Origin: an uncultured Elusimicrobia bacterium
GTDB taxonomy: Bacteria; Elusimicrobiota; Elusimicrobia; Elusimicrobiales; Elusimicrobiaceae
Direction: 5' to 3'
Length of the DNA stretch: 37,124 bases
Assembly (NCBI GenBank): GCA_947306425.1
Contig: CAMZGO010000016.1
Location: forward strand, 1 to 37,124
Of this stretch, positions 27,232 to 36,910 are shown in pieces (position 1 is the stretch's first letter; each line of letters begins with the position of its first letter). The notes under the pieces were generated by a model. It was not told the origin of the DNA, searched no databases, and worked only from the letters and a program-made list of their open reading frames with translations. Made by a program: the position numbers and the translations under genes.

Positions 27232-27262
27232 TTGTACCCTTTTGCGCGTAATTTTATATAAT
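27232..27262 (+). promoter_or_regulatory. Promoter directly upstream of the 27269 gene
   Basis: TTGTAC (27232-27237) and TATAAT (27257-27262) with a long 19-base spacer (17 if TATATA at 27255 is used). The ATG comes six bases after the -10. Confidence 0.5.
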
Positions 27263-27268
27263 AAATAT

Positions 27269-28762
27269 ATGCGTAAACCGGCACTTACTTTAATATTCTG
27301 TTTGTGTACCGTTTTTGGTTTTGCCGTATCTTTTAGTTCAAAAGATAAGGGTTTTAGTATTTCCCTTTCTTCAAAATGGCAAAATGAGGCAACAAAAGAT
27401 ACACAAGTATTAAATTTGCAAAACGGGGCAAATAAAATAATCGTAATACCATTGGATAAATGCAATCAGGTAGATTGCCTTGAAAAAATTATAAAAAACA
27501 GAATTAAACAAGTTAAAAGTAAAAAGTTTAAACTTATAAAAAATACTTATTCGGGGGAAGAAATTAAAAGAACTGAATTTTCTACCTTGGACCCTTTACT
27601 TTCCTTTAGTTATATTGCTGATGATACAAATTATACTGAGGGTTATTTTTTAGCGGATTCAAAAGGATATAAAATTGAGGTCGTAGGTTTAAGCGATGTT
27701 GATGCCGCAGTTAACCTTTCCTTTATAACTCCAAAACCAAAAGAAATTCAGGACTTACCCCTAATTACCGAAGAAAAACCCTTAATTGAAGAAAATATAA
27801 TCGTACCGGAAATACAAGAAACCCAACGTCAAACCCTTGCCCAAACATTTTCAAGTAAACAATCTTTGCAAAACAAAAAAGAAAATAAAATTTCTATTTC
27901 TAAAAAATTTTCTTCCATAATTTTTTTGGTTTTTATTTATATATTTGTTGCAGTAAGTTTTTTCTTTTACAACATTTTCTTTGCACAAAAACCGGATAAA
28001 ACACCCACTAACCCTAAATCATTTTATCCTATAAGAGGAGCACGTTTATATGGTTCGCCGGATTTATTTTTGCGGCTTTATGACAGTCAAGGTCAAAATT
28101 TTGTTGTTACTTCCCAGAGGTGGAGTAGTTTTTTAATGGAATTCGGTTTTTATGGCACCTTGTTTTTCCTATTCTTACATTTTGTTGTAGAATCATTGAC
28201 TAATCAAGGGCCCGGCACAAATACAGTTTTAGTAAACACCTTTCTTTCATTGTGTTATTTGTTTGCAATTTTCGGTTTAATATTTATGTTGAGCGGTAAA
28301 GTGCTTAATATTCTTTTCCCACCGGCTATCTACATATATACCGATAAAGGTACAATATTATTTAAAATTATTAGGCGCGGAAGCGGAATTTTAAATTATG
28401 CTTATTTAGTTCTGACAAACAATGATGCCGTATTGTTCCGGTTGGAAACGCCGAAACTTTTTTTGTTAAGAAAATTTATGCTCTTGGATAAAACAGGAAG
28501 ACTTGCCATAATAAAAGAAAAATCCTTACCAAAAGCAATTGCACGCAAAATATTTGGTCATTTGGGCGGAACACTTAGGGCAAGTTATACTGTTGAAGGC
28601 AAAAATGAAAGTAAAGGGGAAATTTTATCATTGCGTAGGATAAATACTCAATTCCAGGCAGATATAAATAAACCTCAAGCAATTTCCCCCAGTGCAATGC
28701 TTGCTGTGCTGGCAGTAATTTTTGTAATAGATAGAGATAAATATTATCCATGGTTTAATTAA
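27269..28762 (+). CDS. Membrane protein of unknown function with N-terminal signal sequence
   Basis: I do not recognise the family. The start MRKPALTLIFCLCTVFGFAV is a signal sequence. An extracytoplasmic beta-rich domain (about 22-165) with a CNQVDC pair follows, then a Pro/Gln/Glu linker, a membrane helix (about 214-238), a soluble segment starting FYPIRGARLYGSPDLFLRLY, two more helices (about 293-311 and 320-348) and a C-terminal domain of about 150 residues. A TTG start at 27242 is possible but would overlap the promoter and spoil the signal peptide. No Shine-Dalgarno is visible, consistent with a leaderless message. The stop is one base before the ftcD-type gene. Confidence 0.75.
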   Translation: MRKPALTLIFCLCTVFGFAVSFSSKDKGFSISLSSKWQNEATKDTQVLNLQNGANKIIVIPLDKCNQVDCLEKIIKNRIKQVKSKKFKLIKNTYSGEEIKRTEFSTLDPLLSFSYIADDTNYTEGYFLADSKGYKIEVVGLSDVDAAVNLSFITPKPKEIQDLPLITEEKPLIEENIIVPEIQETQRQTLAQTFSSKQSLQNKKENKISISKKFSSIIFLVFIYIFVAVSFFFYNIFFAQKPDKTPTNPKSFYPIRGARLYGSPDLFLRLYDSQGQNFVVTSQRWSSFLMEFGFYGTLFFLFLHFVVESLTNQGPGTNTVLVNTFLSLCYLFAIFGLIFMLSGKVLNILFPPAIYIYTDKGTILFKIIRRGSGILNYAYLVLTNNDAVLFRLETPKLFLLRKFMLLDKTGRLAIIKEKSLPKAIARKIFGHLGGTLRASYTVEGKNESKGEILSLRRINTQFQADINKPQAISPSAMLAVLAVIFVIDRDKYYPWFN

Positions 28763-29821: not shown

Positions 29822-32320
29822 ATGGCCCTAAAAACTTTAAATTTGTACAGCCCTGTTAATGGGGTAATGATTGATATTTCCAAAGTACCTGACGATGCCT
29901 TTGCGGAAAAAATGCTTGGGGACGGTGTCGCTTTTGAACCGGAAGAAAATTTTATTTCCGCACCTTCGGACGCCACGGTTAAAACGCTTCACAAATGTTT
30001 ACATGCCATAGTACTTGAAAAGGACGGTTTTGAAATTTTAATTCATATCGGTGTTGATACTGTTTCGCTGAGAGGACAAGGCTTTAAAGCTCTTGTTAAA
30101 GACGGTGATAGCGTAAAAAGAGGACAAAAGATTATTGAATTTGACCGGGATTTTTTAGCAAAAAATGCTAAAAGCAATATAGTAATTATGGTTATTGCCA
30201 CACCTTTGGAAGTAACATTGAAAAAAGAAAACTTAATTAAAGTATCACCTCAAACAAAAGTTTTTGATGCTTTCTATCAAGAAATATTACCACAAGTGGT
30301 TGAACCAAGAATCTTCCAAACATTTACCAGCGAAGAATTCAGTATTCTAAATAAAACCGGGCTTCATGCAAGGCCGGCAGGGGAAATTGCAACTTTAGCA
30401 CAAAGCTTTAAAAATACAGATATTTTTCTTCTAAAAGGGCAAAAACAAGCAAAGGCAAAAAGTGTAGTAGAAATTCTAGGACTTTCTTTGGAATACGGGG
30501 ACAAAGTAAAAGTTATGGCAACCGGTGCCGATGCAGAATTTGCTGCAGTTGAAGTTAAAAATTTTATTTTAAGTGAACTCAATGATAACTTAATACCCCC
30601 TAAATTGCAGCCTGAAATACCTTCAAGAATTCATATTGCCGGGGAAGCTCAATTTAAAGGTATCGGTATTTTTGACGGGTTAAGTATCGGTAAAGCTTAT
30701 GTTTTAAGGGGTTACAAATTTGATATACAAGAAAAGTCTCCGTTCACTGTAGAGCAAGAACTTGCAAAATTTCAAGGTTCACTTAAAAATGTCAAAAGTA
30801 CCTTAGATAAAGAACGCCATGCCGTTTACGGGCAAAAAGACAGGGAAGAAATATTACTCGCCCACATTACTATTTTGGAAGACCCTTTCCTAATTGATGA
30901 AACTGAACAATTAATAAAACAAGGTTATAGTGCTGCTTTTGCGTTTTCTTCCGCAGTGAAGCGCGCAATAGATGTTTTGAAAAAGGCAGGTAATGCTATA
31001 TTAAGATCTAGAGTAGCAGATTTTGTTGACTTGGAAACCCGCTTGCTTGCTGATTTAACCGGCCAAAATTACGGGCTTCCCAAATTTACGGAAGATACAA
31101 TAATAATTGCCAAAGAATTGCTGTCCCATCACTTAAACGACTTAAACGAACACATAACCGGCATAGTTATGGCAGAAGGGTCCGCCCTATCCCATGTATC
31201 GATAATGTTGAAAACACTTGGCATTCCTACAGTCATAGGTGTAGGCCAAGATATTTTGACAATTTCAGACGGGGCAGATATTATTTTAGATTCCAAACTC
31301 GGTACAATTACCGTTAATCCCACAAATATAAGCGAGGTAAAAAAGCAGACAGAAATTATTAAAATAAACCGCCAAGAAAATATGGCTCATGCTTTTGAAC
31401 CCGCTGTAACAAAAGATGGTGTTGAAATTACGGTTACGGGAAATGTCGGGACCTTAGACCAGGCCAAAAAAAGTGCCGAGCAAGGCGCACAAGGTATAGG
31501 ACTTGTAAGGACGGAATTTTTATTTGCAAGCGCGAAAAAAGCACCAACCGAACGAGAGCAATATGAAATTTATCAAAAAATAGTTGATTTACAAAACGGA
31601 AACCCGGTTATAATCAGAACCTTAGATGTCGGCGCCGATAAACCTATATCGTTTATTCCTCAAATTAAAGAAGAAAATCCAATCCTCGGTAGGCGCGGAA
31701 TAAGAACATCCTTTGCAAACGTGGAAATTTTAAAAACACAACTTCGCGCAATAATGCGCGTTAAACCATACGGTATGGCAAAAATAATGATACCTATGGT
31801 AACTTTTATAGAAGAAATTTCTACTGTCCGCCGTTTTGTTAAAGAAGAACAAAGTAAACTTGGGATTGATAAGGTATCCCTTGGCATGATGGTTGAAGTT
31901 CCAGCCGCTGCCTTAATGGCCGAAGAGTTTGCAAAGAAAGTAGACTTCTTTTCCATAGGTACTAATGATTTGACACAATATACTTTGGCATTAGACAGAT
32001 CGCACCCGACTTTAAATTTTCTTTCCGACAGTCTAAATCCTTCAATTTTGCGTATGGTAAAAATGACTGTTGAAGGGGCTAAAAAATATGGTAAACCTGT
32101 TGGTGTTTGCGGTGCCATTGCGAGCGAACCTGCAGGCGCAATTTTACTTATCGGGCTTGGAATAAGGGCCCTAAGTGTAGTGCCGAGTGCAATTGCTGAT
32201 ATTAAAGCACTCATACGTAGAATTGATATCAAAAAATGCGAACAAGTGGCACAAAGAGCAATAAACTGTACTAGTGTTGCGGAAGTAAGATATTTGGTAA
32301 AAACGGAGTTTGAACTTTAA
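29822..32320 (+). CDS. Fused PTS phosphotransferase: EIIA(Glc-type)-HPr-Enzyme I
   Basis: One 832-aa polypeptide carries three PTS steps. EIIA of the glucose type (1-150) has its phospho-His in EILIHIGVDTV (H75). HPr (about 170-255) has GLHARPA (H182). Enzyme I (about 270-832) has its phospho-His in ALSHVSIM (H458), DVGADKPISFIP, RTEFLF, GTNDLTQYTLALDR and the C-terminal active-site Cys in GVCGAIA (C763). Phosphate would pass from PEP to EI, HPr and EIIA within or between chains, then to the IIB domain of the next gene. Good AGAGG site before ATG. The HPr region keeps a Ser (AKSVVEILG) near the Ser46 site, but no HPr kinase is in the window. Confidence 0.95.
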   Translation: MALKTLNLYSPVNGVMIDISKVPDDAFAEKMLGDGVAFEPEENFISAPSDATVKTLHKCLHAIVLEKDGFEILIHIGVDTVSLRGQGFKALVKDGDSVKRGQKIIEFDRDFLAKNAKSNIVIMVIATPLEVTLKKENLIKVSPQTKVFDAFYQEILPQVVEPRIFQTFTSEEFSILNKTGLHARPAGEIATLAQSFKNTDIFLLKGQKQAKAKSVVEILGLSLEYGDKVKVMATGADAEFAAVEVKNFILSELNDNLIPPKLQPEIPSRIHIAGEAQFKGIGIFDGLSIGKAYVLRGYKFDIQEKSPFTVEQELAKFQGSLKNVKSTLDKERHAVYGQKDREEILLAHITILEDPFLIDETEQLIKQGYSAAFAFSSAVKRAIDVLKKAGNAILRSRVADFVDLETRLLADLTGQNYGLPKFTEDTIIIAKELLSHHLNDLNEHITGIVMAEGSALSHVSIMLKTLGIPTVIGVGQDILTISDGADIILDSKLGTITVNPTNISEVKKQTEIIKINRQENMAHAFEPAVTKDGVEITVTGNVGTLDQAKKSAEQGAQGIGLVRTEFLFASAKKAPTEREQYEIYQKIVDLQNGNPVIIRTLDVGADKPISFIPQIKEENPILGRRGIRTSFANVEILKTQLRAIMRVKPYGMAKIMIPMVTFIEEISTVRRFVKEEQSKLGIDKVSLGMMVEVPAAALMAEEFAKKVDFFSIGTNDLTQYTLALDRSHPTLNFLSDSLNPSILRMVKMTVEGAKKYGKPVGVCGAIASEPAGAILLIGLGIRALSVVPSAIADIKALIRRIDIKKCEQVAQRAINCTSVAEVRYLVKTEFEL

Positions 32321-32322
32321 TT

Positions 32323-33750
32323 ATGAACATAACCTTTAAAAAGTTTGCTGCTTTTTTTGTATCTTTGGGTAAATCATTAATGTTGCCCATCGCAGTGCTT
32401 CCTATAGCCGGGCTTTTGCTAAGATTCGGGCAACCCGATATGCTTAATATCCAATTTTTAGCAGCTGCAGGGGAAGCTGTATTCAACAATTTGCCTGTTA
32501 TTTTCGCTTTAGGCGTTGCGGTAGGTTTTTCAAAGGAAGAACACGGCGCAGCAGCCCTTTCGGCTTTTGTAGGTTATGTGGTTATGACTTCGGGCATGAA
32601 AATTTTTGATGAAAAAATTGATATGGGTGTTTTAGGCGGTATAATCATGGGTATAACGGCGGGATTGCTTTACAACAAATATAAGTCAATAAAATTGCCG
32701 CCTTTTCTCGCTTTCTTTGGCGGAAGGCGCTTTGTGCCTATAATTACGGGATTATTTGCCATATTTTATGCTTTAATTTTCGCTTTTATTTGGCCTCAAA
32801 TTTCCAATGTGATATCAAGTTTCGGCAAATGGGTAATAGCAAGCAATAACATAGGTCTTTTCTTTTTCGGGCTTGCAAACCGTTTGCTTATACCTCTAGG
32901 TTTACACCATGTGCTAAATAATTTGGTTTGGTTTCAATTCGGGGATTTTACCGTAATTGAAACAGGGGCTGAAATCGTAAAACATGGGGACTTATGGCGT
33001 TTCTTTGCAGGAGATCCTACCGCCGGGGCTTTTATGTCCGGCTTTTTTCCTGTAATGATGTTTGGACTTCCTGCGGCGGCTTTGGCCATGATACTTGAAT
33101 CATATAAAAATAACCGTAAAGCGACCGCAGGTATATTACTGAGTGCGGCTTTGACCTCCTTTTTGACAGGTATAACGGAACCTATAGAATTTGCTTTTAT
33201 GTTTTTGGCTTTCCCTCTTTATATTTTGCATGCCGTTTTGACAGGAATAAGTTTAGTGATTATGAATACGCTGGGGGTAAAGTTAGGGTTTACGTTTTCA
33301 GCGGGATTATTTGACTATCTTTTAAATTTCGGTATAAGCACTAAACCTTTGGTTTTACTGCCTGTCGGGCTGGCATATGGCGTATTGTACTTTTTCCTGT
33401 TTAGATTTGTAATTCGCAAATGGGATTTAAAAACACCGGGAAGGGAAACCCTAACCCAAAATCCTACCCCGTCCGCCAGCCATAATACGCAGGTGATTGA
33501 CAATAAAGTAAATTTTACCAGAGGTGCTAAATACCTGCTTGCTTTAGGAGGAAAGGAAAATATTAAAAATCTCGGTGCATGTGCAACACGCTTACGTTTG
33601 GAAGTATTTGACAGCAGTAAAGTAGATGTAACAACGTTAAAAACTCTTGGTGCAAGAGGAGTAATAAATAAAGAAGGGATAGTACAAGTAATTATAGGGC
33701 CGGAGGCGGACCTAATAAGTGATGAAATCCGCCACGCACGGGAAGGTTGA
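32323..33750 (+). CDS. PTS sugar permease IICB, GlcNAc/glucose type
   Basis: The IIC part (1-370) has about ten membrane segments, with FGLPAAALAM, LTGITEPIEFAFMF and GLHHVLNNLVWFQFG; the last is closer to N-acetylglucosamine permeases (NagE) than to PtsG. The IIB part (about 400-475) carries the phospho-Cys in GACATRLRLEV (C420). There is no IIA in this protein; it is in the fused upstream gene, so the two genes make a complete PTS. It starts two bases after the previous stop. Substrate is GlcNAc or glucose by similarity; GlcNAc is my preference. Confidence 0.92.
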   Translation: MNITFKKFAAFFVSLGKSLMLPIAVLPIAGLLLRFGQPDMLNIQFLAAAGEAVFNNLPVIFALGVAVGFSKEEHGAAALSAFVGYVVMTSGMKIFDEKIDMGVLGGIIMGITAGLLYNKYKSIKLPPFLAFFGGRRFVPIITGLFAIFYALIFAFIWPQISNVISSFGKWVIASNNIGLFFFGLANRLLIPLGLHHVLNNLVWFQFGDFTVIETGAEIVKHGDLWRFFAGDPTAGAFMSGFFPVMMFGLPAAALAMILESYKNNRKATAGILLSAALTSFLTGITEPIEFAFMFLAFPLYILHAVLTGISLVIMNTLGVKLGFTFSAGLFDYLLNFGISTKPLVLLPVGLAYGVLYFFLFRFVIRKWDLKTPGRETLTQNPTPSASHNTQVIDNKVNFTRGAKYLLALGGKENIKNLGACATRLRLEVFDSSKVDVTTLKTLGARGVINKEGIVQVIIGPEADLISDEIRHAREG

Positions 33751-33752
33751 TT

Positions 33753-34601
33753 ATGAAAAAATTATTTTGTTTATGTTTATTTTGCAGTTTTGCAATATCA
33801 AGTTTTGCTTTCAGCGCAGGGGACTTATTCATAAAAAACTCACGCTTTTGGCAAAATAAATTTTCGCTTGATATAATATCGGAAGAACCGGTCTTTATTG
33901 GATTTTCTTTTAACTTGACCGACCACCGCAACTTTGACAAAAAAATCTACTCTTTTAATCTTCCTTTTATGTTATCTTTCCCTTTTTTTGATTTAATTTT
34001 TGAACCGTTTATATATCCTAACACAAATAATGATGCCTGGGCCTATGGGGGAAACGTTACAATAAAAGGCCTTTTGAGAAATGATGAAATCAATAATACT
34101 TCATCCCAAGGTTATTTGAGGGCAGGTTTTGCAAACCAAAACGCGAATATAACCAGAATCGGAGGAACTAACGAAAAAGAAAATTTCAGGCAATTTGCCT
34201 TTGAAGGTGGCCTTAACTTTAATTTCCAAAACCTTTTTAACTTTGATATTAACGGTAACATTTTTACATATCCTGATGAAGTAAAAAATGTTGTGGCTTT
34301 TGGCGGTATAATGAATCAAAATGAAATTTCTAACTTAGGCACCATAGATTATGTGCTTAACTTCCCGCATTATTCAGTAGGCGGCGGTATTACATGGCTT
34401 TCTACGGAAACTGACGCAAAAACCTCTATTTCATATAAATACGTAGATTATGAGAACGATTTAAAAACCCATTCCGTTATGGTTCAAACAAAAGTTTCCC
34501 TTGAACAGCATTTAATAATGACTTTAATTTACAACCATTTGTTTGAAACGCACGGAAAAAACAGGGATTTATTCGGCATAGGCCTAAATTATTTGTTTTA
34601 G
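33753..34601 (+). CDS. Predicted outer-membrane beta-barrel protein
   Basis: The signal peptide MKKLFCLCLFCSFAISSFAF precedes alternating hydrophobic/polar strands such as FNLPFMLSFPFFDLIFEPF, FEGGLNFNFQNLF and TSISYKYVDYEND, ending in FGIGLNYLF. A terminal aromatic residue is the mark of barrels inserted by BamA. At 282 aa it may form about 10-12 strands. ATG 33753 has GAAGG six bases upstream; the ptsC-type gene ends three bases earlier. Its place next to a sugar PTS suggests an outer-membrane pore or a related envelope role, which is inference. Confidence 0.75.
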   Translation: MKKLFCLCLFCSFAISSFAFSAGDLFIKNSRFWQNKFSLDIISEEPVFIGFSFNLTDHRNFDKKIYSFNLPFMLSFPFFDLIFEPFIYPNTNNDAWAYGGNVTIKGLLRNDEINNTSSQGYLRAGFANQNANITRIGGTNEKENFRQFAFEGGLNFNFQNLFNFDINGNIFTYPDEVKNVVAFGGIMNQNEISNLGTIDYVLNFPHYSVGGGITWLSTETDAKTSISYKYVDYENDLKTHSVMVQTKVSLEQHLIMTLIYNHLFETHGKNRDLFGIGLNYLF

Positions 34602-34609
34602 GGGGAATT

Positions 34610-35395
34610 ATGGAAGAAATTAAAAAACACGCACATCATACTACAGCAGGGGATAATTCCCTTGCTAAAGATGCAGCCACAAGGGTTTTATCATTAGTAT
34701 CACATAAATTAAAAACACCGCTTTCAATTATAAACGGTTATTCGGAAACAATTTTAGCGGAATTAAAACCCGGGGAAATGTCCAATTTCAGTATAAAAGC
34801 CCTTGAAGACATAAATAAGCAAGGGGAAAAGTTAAGTATTTTAATTGATAAACTTGTCCGCTTTGCCAATATTAGTGATTTGTTACCTGAGGACTTGCAG
34901 AAAAAAGAAATAAATGTACGTAAAATATTTTCTGAAGTATCCTCAAAATGTATTTTGCGTGATGATTCAATTACAATAACGTCATCAGATAATACTATCC
35001 GCGACAGGGCACCAAATGTGGAAATTAAGTGTGACAATGATACCAAAATATATGCCGACGGGGCTTTGCTTTCTATTGCCCTTGAAGAACTTGTGGATAA
35101 TGCAATAAGGTTCAACAATAATGTTAACAAAAAATTACGCCTATTCTATTATGAAGACCAAGGCAAGGATATTTTAGCAGTTGCCGACAACGGCGTAGGA
35201 ATAAGAGAACAACATATAGGTAAAATTTTTCATAAGTTTTATCAAGTAGATGATTTTTTCACCGGACAAATAGAGGGCTGGGGGCTGGGACTTGCTTTGG
35301 TCAAACGTATTATGAATTTACACGGCGGAAACATAACTGTTCGTTCTCAATACGGGGTTGGAACGATTATCTCTTTGGTCTTTCCGAAACAATGA
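34610..35395 (+). CDS. Soluble sensor-less histidine kinase
   Basis: A 261-aa cytosolic kinase. The H-box is SHKLKTPLSIINGYSE (H32), the N-box is ALEELVDNAIRFNNN, G1 is VADNGVGI, the F-box is IFHKFYQVDDFF and G2 is GWGLGLALVKRIM. No membrane helix and no PAS/GAF sensor domain is present; only about 25 residues precede the dimerisation helix. No response regulator is in the window, so it is an orphan. Ribosome site AGGGGGA. Its stop overlaps the next gene's ATG (ATGA), a sign of tight co-production with that unknown protein. Confidence 0.92.
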   Translation: MEEIKKHAHHTTAGDNSLAKDAATRVLSLVSHKLKTPLSIINGYSETILAELKPGEMSNFSIKALEDINKQGEKLSILIDKLVRFANISDLLPEDLQKKEINVRKIFSEVSSKCILRDDSITITSSDNTIRDRAPNVEIKCDNDTKIYADGALLSIALEELVDNAIRFNNNVNKKLRLFYYEDQGKDILAVADNGVGIREQHIGKIFHKFYQVDDFFTGQIEGWGLGLALVKRIMNLHGGNITVRSQYGVGTIISLVFPKQ

Positions 35396-35868
35396 TACAG
35401 AATTTAAAAACCTTTAATTCGGATTTTGAAGAAAAAATTAAAAATTTTTCTGCTTTGGTAAAAGATTTCAAAAATCTTGAAACGCGGCTTGATAAAATTT
35501 CAGTACAAAAAAAACGTAAATTTGAAGTGCGTGATACCGATTTTGAAAAGGATTTCTGCATATTTGCTCTTGCTTTACAAAAAAGCAGTATTACGATGTA
35601 TGATTTTATACAAGAACTTCGTTTTAATTCCTTAAGAATTTTCCCAAAAGAAGACACTTTAATTTTAAAAGAATTTGCCATTTATTGCCAGGCCTGTAAC
35701 ACGCAAATAAAAAACTTTGATATAATTTTCAATACAGTGGGGAATCAAATTCAGGAAACATCTTTAAACTTAAAATGGGGGCTTATATCAATAGCGAGAA
35801 ATGACTTAGTAGCCCTAGGAAAACAATTATTATCTTTGGTTAAAGAGGTTAAAAAATATTATGAATAA
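35392..35868 (+). CDS. Helical hypothetical protein coupled to the histidine kinase
   Basis: The 158-aa protein matches no family I know. It looks wholly alpha-helical: an N-terminal coiled-coil-like part (FEEKIKNFSALVKDFKNLE), then a helical domain with cysteines in CIFAL and YCQACN, and a basic end (LVKEVKKYYE). It contains no histidine at all, so it cannot be a phosphotransfer (Hpt) domain. Overlap of four bases with the kinase gene and eight with the transporter gene points to a functional link with one or both. Confidence 0.75.
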   Translation: MIQNLKTFNSDFEEKIKNFSALVKDFKNLETRLDKISVQKKRKFEVRDTDFEKDFCIFALALQKSSITMYDFIQELRFNSLRIFPKEDTLILKEFAIYCQACNTQIKNFDIIFNTVGNQIQETSLNLKWGLISIARNDLVALGKQLLSLVKEVKKYYE

Positions 35869-36910
35869 AAAAAATATAAGTTCCGTACCAACAGGAATAA
35901 ACACCTATAATAAAATAAATACTCTTTGTTTAACTATTATTGCCGCAGTCAGCATAACCCTTGCACTTATTTACACCCGCACAATTTTGGTACCTTTGGT
36001 GATATCGGTATTTATCTTTGTTATGATTACCCCTCTTATCAGATATATAAAATATTTTACCCGTTGGCCTAAGTGGATATGTATCTTGATAGCAACAATT
36101 ATAGTATTGGTACCTTTGGTTTTGGTAATTATTTTTATAGCAAACTCTATTTCCAATTTTGCACAAGAAGCATTTACCTACCGCATCAGATTACTTGAAT
36201 TATTGAATCATTTTACCGCATTTTTAAAATCACAAAAAATACCTATACCTGATGAAATGTTAACATTTTCAAGTATCAGGGAAGTTCTTTCCGCCCCATA
36301 CTATACGAAACTATTAAGGGGGGTTGGCTCTAATGCAATGACATTTATTTCCTACTCCTTTTTAGTTTTTATCTTTCTGTTCTTTTTCTTAATAGGCAGC
36401 GGGCGTACTAAAATTACAAATAATTTAATTAAGGAGATACAAAATAAAATTTCAGCTTACTTATATATTCATATTATTATGTCTCTGATAACCGGTTTTT
36501 GTGTTTGGGTAGTATATGTTTCCTGCGGTCTTGATTTAGCTGTAATGTTCGCTGTATTAACGGTACTGCTTAATTTTATACCTAATATCGGCTCGGTAAT
36601 ATCTGTAGTATTGCCTTTGCCTATTGCTTTTTTACAATTCGGATGGGGTGTAAAATTTGTATTAATTCTGCTTTTACCTTCAATAATTCAATTCGTTTTG
36701 GGAAGTTTGATTGAGCCTAAAATTTTAGGTGAAGGCGTTGATTTACATCCCGTAACGATAATCGGTTCCTTAATTTTTTGGGGTCTTGTTTGGGGAATTC
36801 CAGGTGCATTTATGGCAGTTCCGATGACTGCGGCATTCCGTATAGTTTTAGAAAAAATTGAACCGACGCGCCCCTTTGCCGAACTCCTTGCAGGAAGATT
36901 ACCGAAGTAG
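35861..36910 (+). CDS. AI-2E/PerM-family transporter
   Basis: The 349-aa protein has the AI-2E family pattern: two early helices (about 23-60), a third at 75-100, a soluble insert (about 100-155) and a cluster of helices to the C-terminus with the diagnostic LLNFIPNIGSVISVVLPLPI and IEPKILGEGVDLHPVTII. Family members export small molecules or act as sodium/proton antiporters; AI-2 export is only one case. Last gene of the six-gene unit. No clear intrinsic terminator follows. Confidence 0.9.
   Translation: MNKKNISSVPTGINTYNKINTLCLTIIAAVSITLALIYTRTILVPLVISVFIFVMITPLIRYIKYFTRWPKWICILIATIIVLVPLVLVIIFIANSISNFAQEAFTYRIRLLELLNHFTAFLKSQKIPIPDEMLTFSSIREVLSAPYYTKLLRGVGSNAMTFISYSFLVFIFLFFFLIGSGRTKITNNLIKEIQNKISAYLYIHIIMSLITGFCVWVVYVSCGLDLAVMFAVLTVLLNFIPNIGSVISVVLPLPIAFLQFGWGVKFVLILLLPSIIQFVLGSLIEPKILGEGVDLHPVTIIGSLIFWGLVWGIPGAFMAVPMTAAFRIVLEKIEPTRPFAELLAGRLPK

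What the first reader, a model, noticed from the sequence alone, without database searches (positions are those of the whole stretch)
29822..36910. Six-gene operon: complete two-polypeptide PTS plus outer-membrane barrel, orphan kinase, unknown helical protein and PerM transporter
Gaps are 2, 2 and 8 bases, then overlaps of 4 and 8. EIIA, HPr and EI are one chain and IICB the next, so sugar uptake is self-contained. The kinase has no sensor domain and no response regulator, and lies among envelope proteins. One hypothesis is a sugar-uptake unit in which the kinase reads PTS or envelope state through the 158-aa protein.
Basis: partly seen in the sequence, partly recalled or inferred. Interest (0 to 1): 0.6.

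Follow-up and report, generated by a model that had tools for sequence, protein, structure and literature searches.

The report
Envelope kinase cassette beside sugar PTS
Six genes that look like one operon in a gut bacterium are really two older units placed side by side, a sugar-uptake system and a conserved membrane-and-signalling cassette of unknown purpose, so the second one is the part worth studying.

Summary
The six genes, their coordinates and their tight spacing are real. The reading as one sugar-sensing unit is not supported. Across 60 Elusimicrobiaceae genomes the last four genes (14-strand outer-membrane barrel, sensor-less histidine kinase, four-helix protein, PerM) form one tight cassette in 52. 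The PTS pair (IIA-HPr-EI, GlcNAc IICB) directly precedes it in only 4, which form one clade. In the other relatives checked the PTS pair is followed by nagB and lies elsewhere or about 8 kb away, and 7 genomes without the fused EI keep the whole cassette. So the window shows a recent junction of two units. The kinase descends from a GAF-containing soluble kinase found across the phylum; its pairing with the barrel is limited to the order. Gut lineages lost the GAF part and carry the helical protein and PerM instead. The helical protein has no histidine, so it is not an Hpt. One genome lost the kinase cleanly and kept barrel, helical protein and PerM; it is also the only one of 43 lacking a stand-alone receiver (RRA) next to phosphoglucomutase. 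RRA is therefore the best candidate partner. Signal and output remain unknown.

The parts
29822..32320 (+). PTS fusion: EIIA(Glc-type)-HPr-EI, 832 aa; belongs to the GlcNAc PTS unit, not to the conserved cassette
32323..33750 (+). PTS IICB, GlcNAc-specific (TIGR01998 over cut-off), 475 aa; in relatives checked followed by nagB
33751..33752 (+). 2-base junction between the PTS unit and the envelope cassette; such adjacency seen only in a four-species clade
33753..34601 (+). Outer-membrane barrel, signal helix + 14 strands (AF2 pLDDT 91.9), fold like CymA/OmpG/FadL; the gene before the kinase throughout this order
34610..35395 (+). Soluble HisKA-HATPase_c histidine kinase, 261 aa, phospho-acceptor H32; core of an ancestral GAF-containing kinase
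35392..35868 (+). U158: predicted cytosolic four-helix bundle, 158 aa (AF2 pLDDT 94.1), no histidine, family-specific
35861..36910 (+). PerM / AI-2E family transporter, 349 aa; closest solved relative TqsA

Best explanation
Two units are juxtaposed. Unit 1 (29822-33750) is the front of a NagF/NagE-type GlcNAc phosphotransferase operon, whose nagB-nagA genes are gone from this place. Unit 2 (33753-36910) is a vertically inherited envelope cassette: a 14-strand pore, a soluble PhoR-type kinase core, a four-helix cytosolic protein and a PerM transporter, in overlapping or nearly touching frames. Shown: gene order, conservation, separability, predicted folds, absence of the GAF region in the gut lineages, and the joint absence of kinase and receiver RRA in one genome. 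Inferred: the kinase autophosphorylates on H32 and hands the phosphate to RRA (a stand-alone receiver beside phosphoglucomutase, outside the window) to set envelope state or expression, while U158 works with PerM at the inner membrane and the barrel is the outer-membrane pore. In this clade the junction may put the cassette under the PTS promoter, which could tie pore level to GlcNAc supply without any protein-level coupling.
For: Cassette complete on one contig in 52 of 60 family genomes and in 66 of the 70 Elusimicrobiaceae loci among 80 named ones, the other four being three cut at contig ends and one without U158 (these overlap with the 60). PTS adjacent in 4 of 60, one clade, support 95/100. 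Fused EI full length in 48 of 60; nagB after IICB in the other genomes whose PTS locus reached that far. Kinase ortholog in 81 of 149 phylum genomes, with a GAF domain in the non-gut ones examined. G126: barrel stop and U158 start overlap (TAATG) where the kinase was, and no receiver lies between phosphoglucomutase and LptF/G. Kinase and RRA are each present in 42 of 43 family genomes, the same one missing (Fisher p 0.023).
Against: The kinase-RRA link rests on one co-loss in a 92%-complete genome. In family f2, G120 lacks the kinase yet has a 100-bit RRA-like hit, and no RRA match of 112 bits or more was seen outside the family. In G042 U158 is absent, so it is dispensable there. No transcript, phosphotransfer or transport data exist. 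R. eutropha has a porin gene beside nagFE (PMC3222305, passages), so a pore beside a GlcNAc PTS can be functional and not chance.
Confidence: 0.55

Rival explanations
1. One functional sugar-uptake regulon: barrel as GlcNAc porin, kinase reading PTS or envelope state through U158.
For: 2-base junction and co-orientation in the window clade; R. eutropha nagF-nagE-nagC includes a porin annotated as GlcNAc-specific (PMC3222305, passages seen); PTS and cassette lie about 8 kb apart in three other same-genus genomes.
Against: PTS adjacent in only 4 of 60 genomes; 7 of 12 genomes without full-length fused EI keep the whole cassette; kinase and U158 are each missing alone in one genome.
Confidence: 0.12
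2. Transporter-coupled sensing: the kinase lost its GAF part and now takes its signal from PerM through U158, much as PhoU links a transporter to PhoR (PhoU role recalled).
For: The genera with U158-PerM behind the kinase have the truncated kinase; the two genomes with a GAF kinase in the family (G128, G132) lack the PerM ortholog and keep U158 elsewhere; 4-base overlaps of kinase and U158 in most genomes; best NCBIfam hit is PhoR, below its cut-off.
Against: G126 keeps barrel-U158-PerM without kinase and G042 keeps kinase-PerM without U158; the correlation may be a single evolutionary event; no PhoU match by sequence, and the listed structural rows are generic bundles.
Confidence: 0.2
3. Pure genomic proximity: the cassette genes share envelope-related expression only, with no physical or signalling link.
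For: Barrel pairing is absent outside the order, where the kinase ortholog has varied neighbours; kinase or U158 can be missing.
Against: Order kept in 52 of 60 genomes with overlapping or nearly touching frames, while flanking genes differ between genera.
Confidence: 0.2

Closest known systems
NagF-NagE GlcNAc PTS (Ralstonia eutropha nagFEC, PMC3222305)
   Same: EI, HPr and EIIA on one chain plus a GlcNAc IIBC chain; a porin gene, nagC, belongs to the set there (passages)
   Different: Here the barrel belongs to a separate conserved kinase cassette; homology of nagC to the barrel was not tested
HK853-RR468 of Thermotoga maritima (3dge and other entries; names and pairing recalled)
   Same: Best solved relatives of the kinase core; a stand-alone receiver as partner
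   Different: This kinase has no membrane or sensor part; its partner is inferred, not shown
TqsA / PerM (AI-2E) transporters, 7nb6
   Same: Same family, E 1.2e-25
   Different: Frame overlaps with a four-helix protein gene behind a kinase gene; substrate unknown
CymA, OmpG, FadL 14-strand pores
   Same: Fold: Z 20.1 CymA, 19.5 OmpG, 19.6 FadL
   Different: No sequence match to any solved chain below E 0.1 or Pfam family

Membership tests
HisKA histidine kinase | Phospho-acceptor His, N, G1 and G2 boxes conserved | tested here: met
   H32, N164, D193, G195, G197, G223, G225, G227 invariant in 11 aligned rows; over Pfam cut-offs
HisKA histidine kinase | Sensor domain and cognate response regulator | tested here: inconclusive
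   No sensor domain in the window protein; GAF in relatives; RRA is a candidate by co-loss only
NagF/NagE-type GlcNAc PTS | IIA-HPr-EI fusion plus GlcNAc-specific IIBC | tested here: met
   Domains and cut-offs
NagF/NagE-type GlcNAc PTS | Linked nag catabolic genes | tested here: inconclusive
   nagB after IICB in relatives; nagB and nagA not found in the window or in the sister loci L040, L093, L094; rest of the own genome not searched for them
AI-2E / PerM transporter | PF01594 full-length match | tested here: met
   139.4 bits vs cut-off 34.3, profile 4-326 of 327
Hpt phosphotransfer protein (U158) | Phospho-accepting histidine in a helical bundle | tested here: not met
   Four-helix bundle but no histidine in the window protein and none among invariant or nearly invariant columns of 61 rows
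PhoU-type adaptor (U158) | PhoU sequence or fold | tested here: inconclusive
   No Pfam hit; structural rows are generic bundles, best Z 13.1
CymA/OmpG/FadL barrels | 14-strand single-chain pore of the same sequence family | tested here: inconclusive
   14 strands and Z near 20; no sequence match

The most novel reading that the evidence does not exclude
A trans-envelope signalling unit specific to gut Elusimicrobiaceae: a kinase that discarded its GAF sensor and is instead governed by a PerM transporter through a new four-helix adaptor (U158), made together with its own outer-membrane pore, and signalling to a stand-alone receiver encoded elsewhere.
Probability: 0.2. Interest if true: 0.7.

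Novelty: new variant of a known kind. Interest (0 to 1): 0.42.

Why it matters
PerM/AI-2E proteins are widespread and their physiological role is poorly settled (recalled). Here one is tied over a whole bacterial family to a pore, a kinase and a protein with no known family, which gives a defined genetic setting in which to test a PerM role and a kinase without a sensor. It also shows that a tight six-gene run can be a recent junction of two units, so operon-based guesses need relatives.

Tried and rejected
PTS-kinase unit: rejected as a conserved unit. U158 as Hpt: rejected, no histidine. U158 homologues in G128 and G132 first looked like chance to me (note) but are real by profile, 106 and 105 bits, and lie beside an RnfC/PduS-like gene, with a BMC gene between in G128. 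U158 structural matches (MukF, STAT, FlgN rows) were not taken as relatives: Foldseek gave no E of 0.001 or less and the best Z is within what helical bundles reach by chance. A phosphoglucomutase beside the kinase ortholog in other families looked like support for RRA, but it is only 34-36% identical to the RRA-linked one, and genomes of this family also hold a second mutase at 32-34%, so it was dropped. I first took the barrel-kinase pair for phylum-wide (note); one search limited it to the order: 15 of 15 loci inside, 0 of 8 outside. Terminator scan no better than shuffles (7 vs 6.9), promoter scan weak (33 vs 24.9, sd 5.9). Literature searches showed no description of this cassette in the listings seen; only passages of PMC3222305 were read. 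That G032 is Elusimicrobium minutum Pei191 is recalled from its genome size, not confirmed.

Full report
OBSERVATION. The six genes are present at the stated places with gaps 2, 2, 8 and overlaps 4 and 8. Families: IIA-HPr-EI, GlcNAc-type IICB, HisKA-HATPase_c kinase, PF01594 transporter; barrel and 158-aa protein (U158) have no family. Hydropathy shows no membrane segment in kinase or U158.

NEIGHBOURS IN THE FAMILY. 60 Elusimicrobiaceae genomes were searched with the EI fusion, kinase and PerM and loci read. The complete order barrel-kinase-U158-PerM is on one contig in 52 of 60. The other eight: G042 lacks U158; G126 lacks the kinase; G156, G153 and G073 are split by contig ends; G128 and G132 have only barrel + longer kinase at the locus; G150 (66% complete) has no hit. 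The PTS pair sits directly upstream in 4 of 60 (own, G094, G154, G157); G156 cannot be decided. In a kinase tree the four form one clade, 95/100 (43 rows, namely the window, 40 of the 80 named loci and two from G128/G132). The fused EI is full length in 48 of 60. In G032 EI and kinase are at 1452657 and 187358 of a 1.64-Mb contig; in G034 at 359707 and 669649 of one contig. In G007, G010 and G049 about 8 kb separate IICB from the barrel, holding nagB, nagA, a glycosyltransferase-like gene (my reading of the sequence) and opposite-strand genes. Seven proteins of that block were sought in the window and in loci of its PTS-linked sisters (L040, L093, L094), with none found. Of the 12 genomes without full-length fused EI, 7 keep the whole cassette on one contig (G040, G151, G152, G057, G063, G102, G160). 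So the window joins two units.

NAMED LOCI. A scan of GTDB contigs with the kinase alignment kept the best 80 of 195 loci. Barrel before kinase: 79 of 80, the exception cut at its contig end; PTS adjacent: 3 of 80. Ten loci outside Elusimicrobiaceae carry barrel + a 510-521-aa kinase; GAF was shown in the two examined by Pfam. The named loci overlap with the 60 genomes.

DEPTH OF THE PARTS. The kinase has an ortholog at E 1e-50 or better in 81 of 149 phylum genomes. Barrel pairing: 15 of 15 loci read in families f1 (G128, G132) and f2, 0 of 8 in other families, and none in 20 wider loci outside the order, which include some of those eight. U158 by profile: 42 of 43 family genomes, plus one marginal hit elsewhere. 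The GAF domain is present in G128; the G132 kinase is of the same length and starts alike; the gut-genus kinases of about 250-285 aa lack it. A PAS-like stretch is below cut-off.

STRUCTURES. Barrel: signal helix and 14 long strands by my count, pLDDT 91.9; Z 20.1 to CymA over 231 residues at 2.5 A, with FadL and OmpG tied. U158: four long helices, pLDDT 94.1; no Foldseek hit at E 0.001; best Z 13.1, within the chance range for bundles. Invariant U158 columns are R32, Q39, D48, R77, K93.

CANDIDATE PARTNER. The own genome has six receivers, three stand-alone: RRA, RRB, RRC. In ten other family genomes RRA was found in 9 of 10, missing in G126; RRC in 10 of 10; RRB in 9 of 10 (for G149 only two receivers were fetched). 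G126 is the genome without the kinase; it has a receiver-GGDEF protein instead of a third stand-alone receiver. There phosphoglucomutase and an LptF/G gene are intact with no receiver between them, while in G032 RRA lies between the corresponding neighbours. Over the 43 family genomes of the phylum sample, kinase and RRA are each missing only from G126. RRA has the receiver residues D8, D9, D54, T82, K104 invariant in 10 rows (roles recalled). This is one event, p 0.023, and G120 in a sister family speaks against a general rule.

MECHANISM. Most likely (inference): kinase to RRA signalling about the envelope; U158 with PerM at the inner membrane; barrel as passive pore. In this clade the cassette may be read from the PTS transcript, since 2 bases leave no room for a promoter except inside IICB. 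No paper in the listings seen describes the cassette.

Noticed in passing
G000 genome, C4:69236-69475 and window 29822-32320: The own genome has a free HPr but only one EI match, the fused one; G094, G154 and G157 also show a single EI match while most relatives show two. The fused EI may serve the free HPr as well.
   Followed up: partly
L049:5371-8883 (G128) and L323 (G132): U158 homologues lie beside an RnfC/PduS-like gene in both genomes, with a BMC-domain gene and an aminotransferase in G128.
   Followed up: partly
window 27242-28762: 506-aa protein with no Pfam or NCBIfam match, conserved upstream of FTCD in the sister species at 57% identity.
   Followed up: no
L321:2113-2751 and L320:2753-3391: In G128 and G132 a 212-aa protein precedes RRA; in G128 it has a weak, below cut-off CheX match.
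   Followed up: no
L043:10889-12064 and equivalents: A divergent metallophosphatase-like gene lies upstream of the barrel in many relatives but was not found in the window or its PTS-linked sister loci.
   Followed up: partly
L330:4253-5482 (G100), L245 (G051): In family f4 a different protein with a barrel-like C-terminus (my reading) lies just upstream of the kinase ortholog.
   Followed up: no
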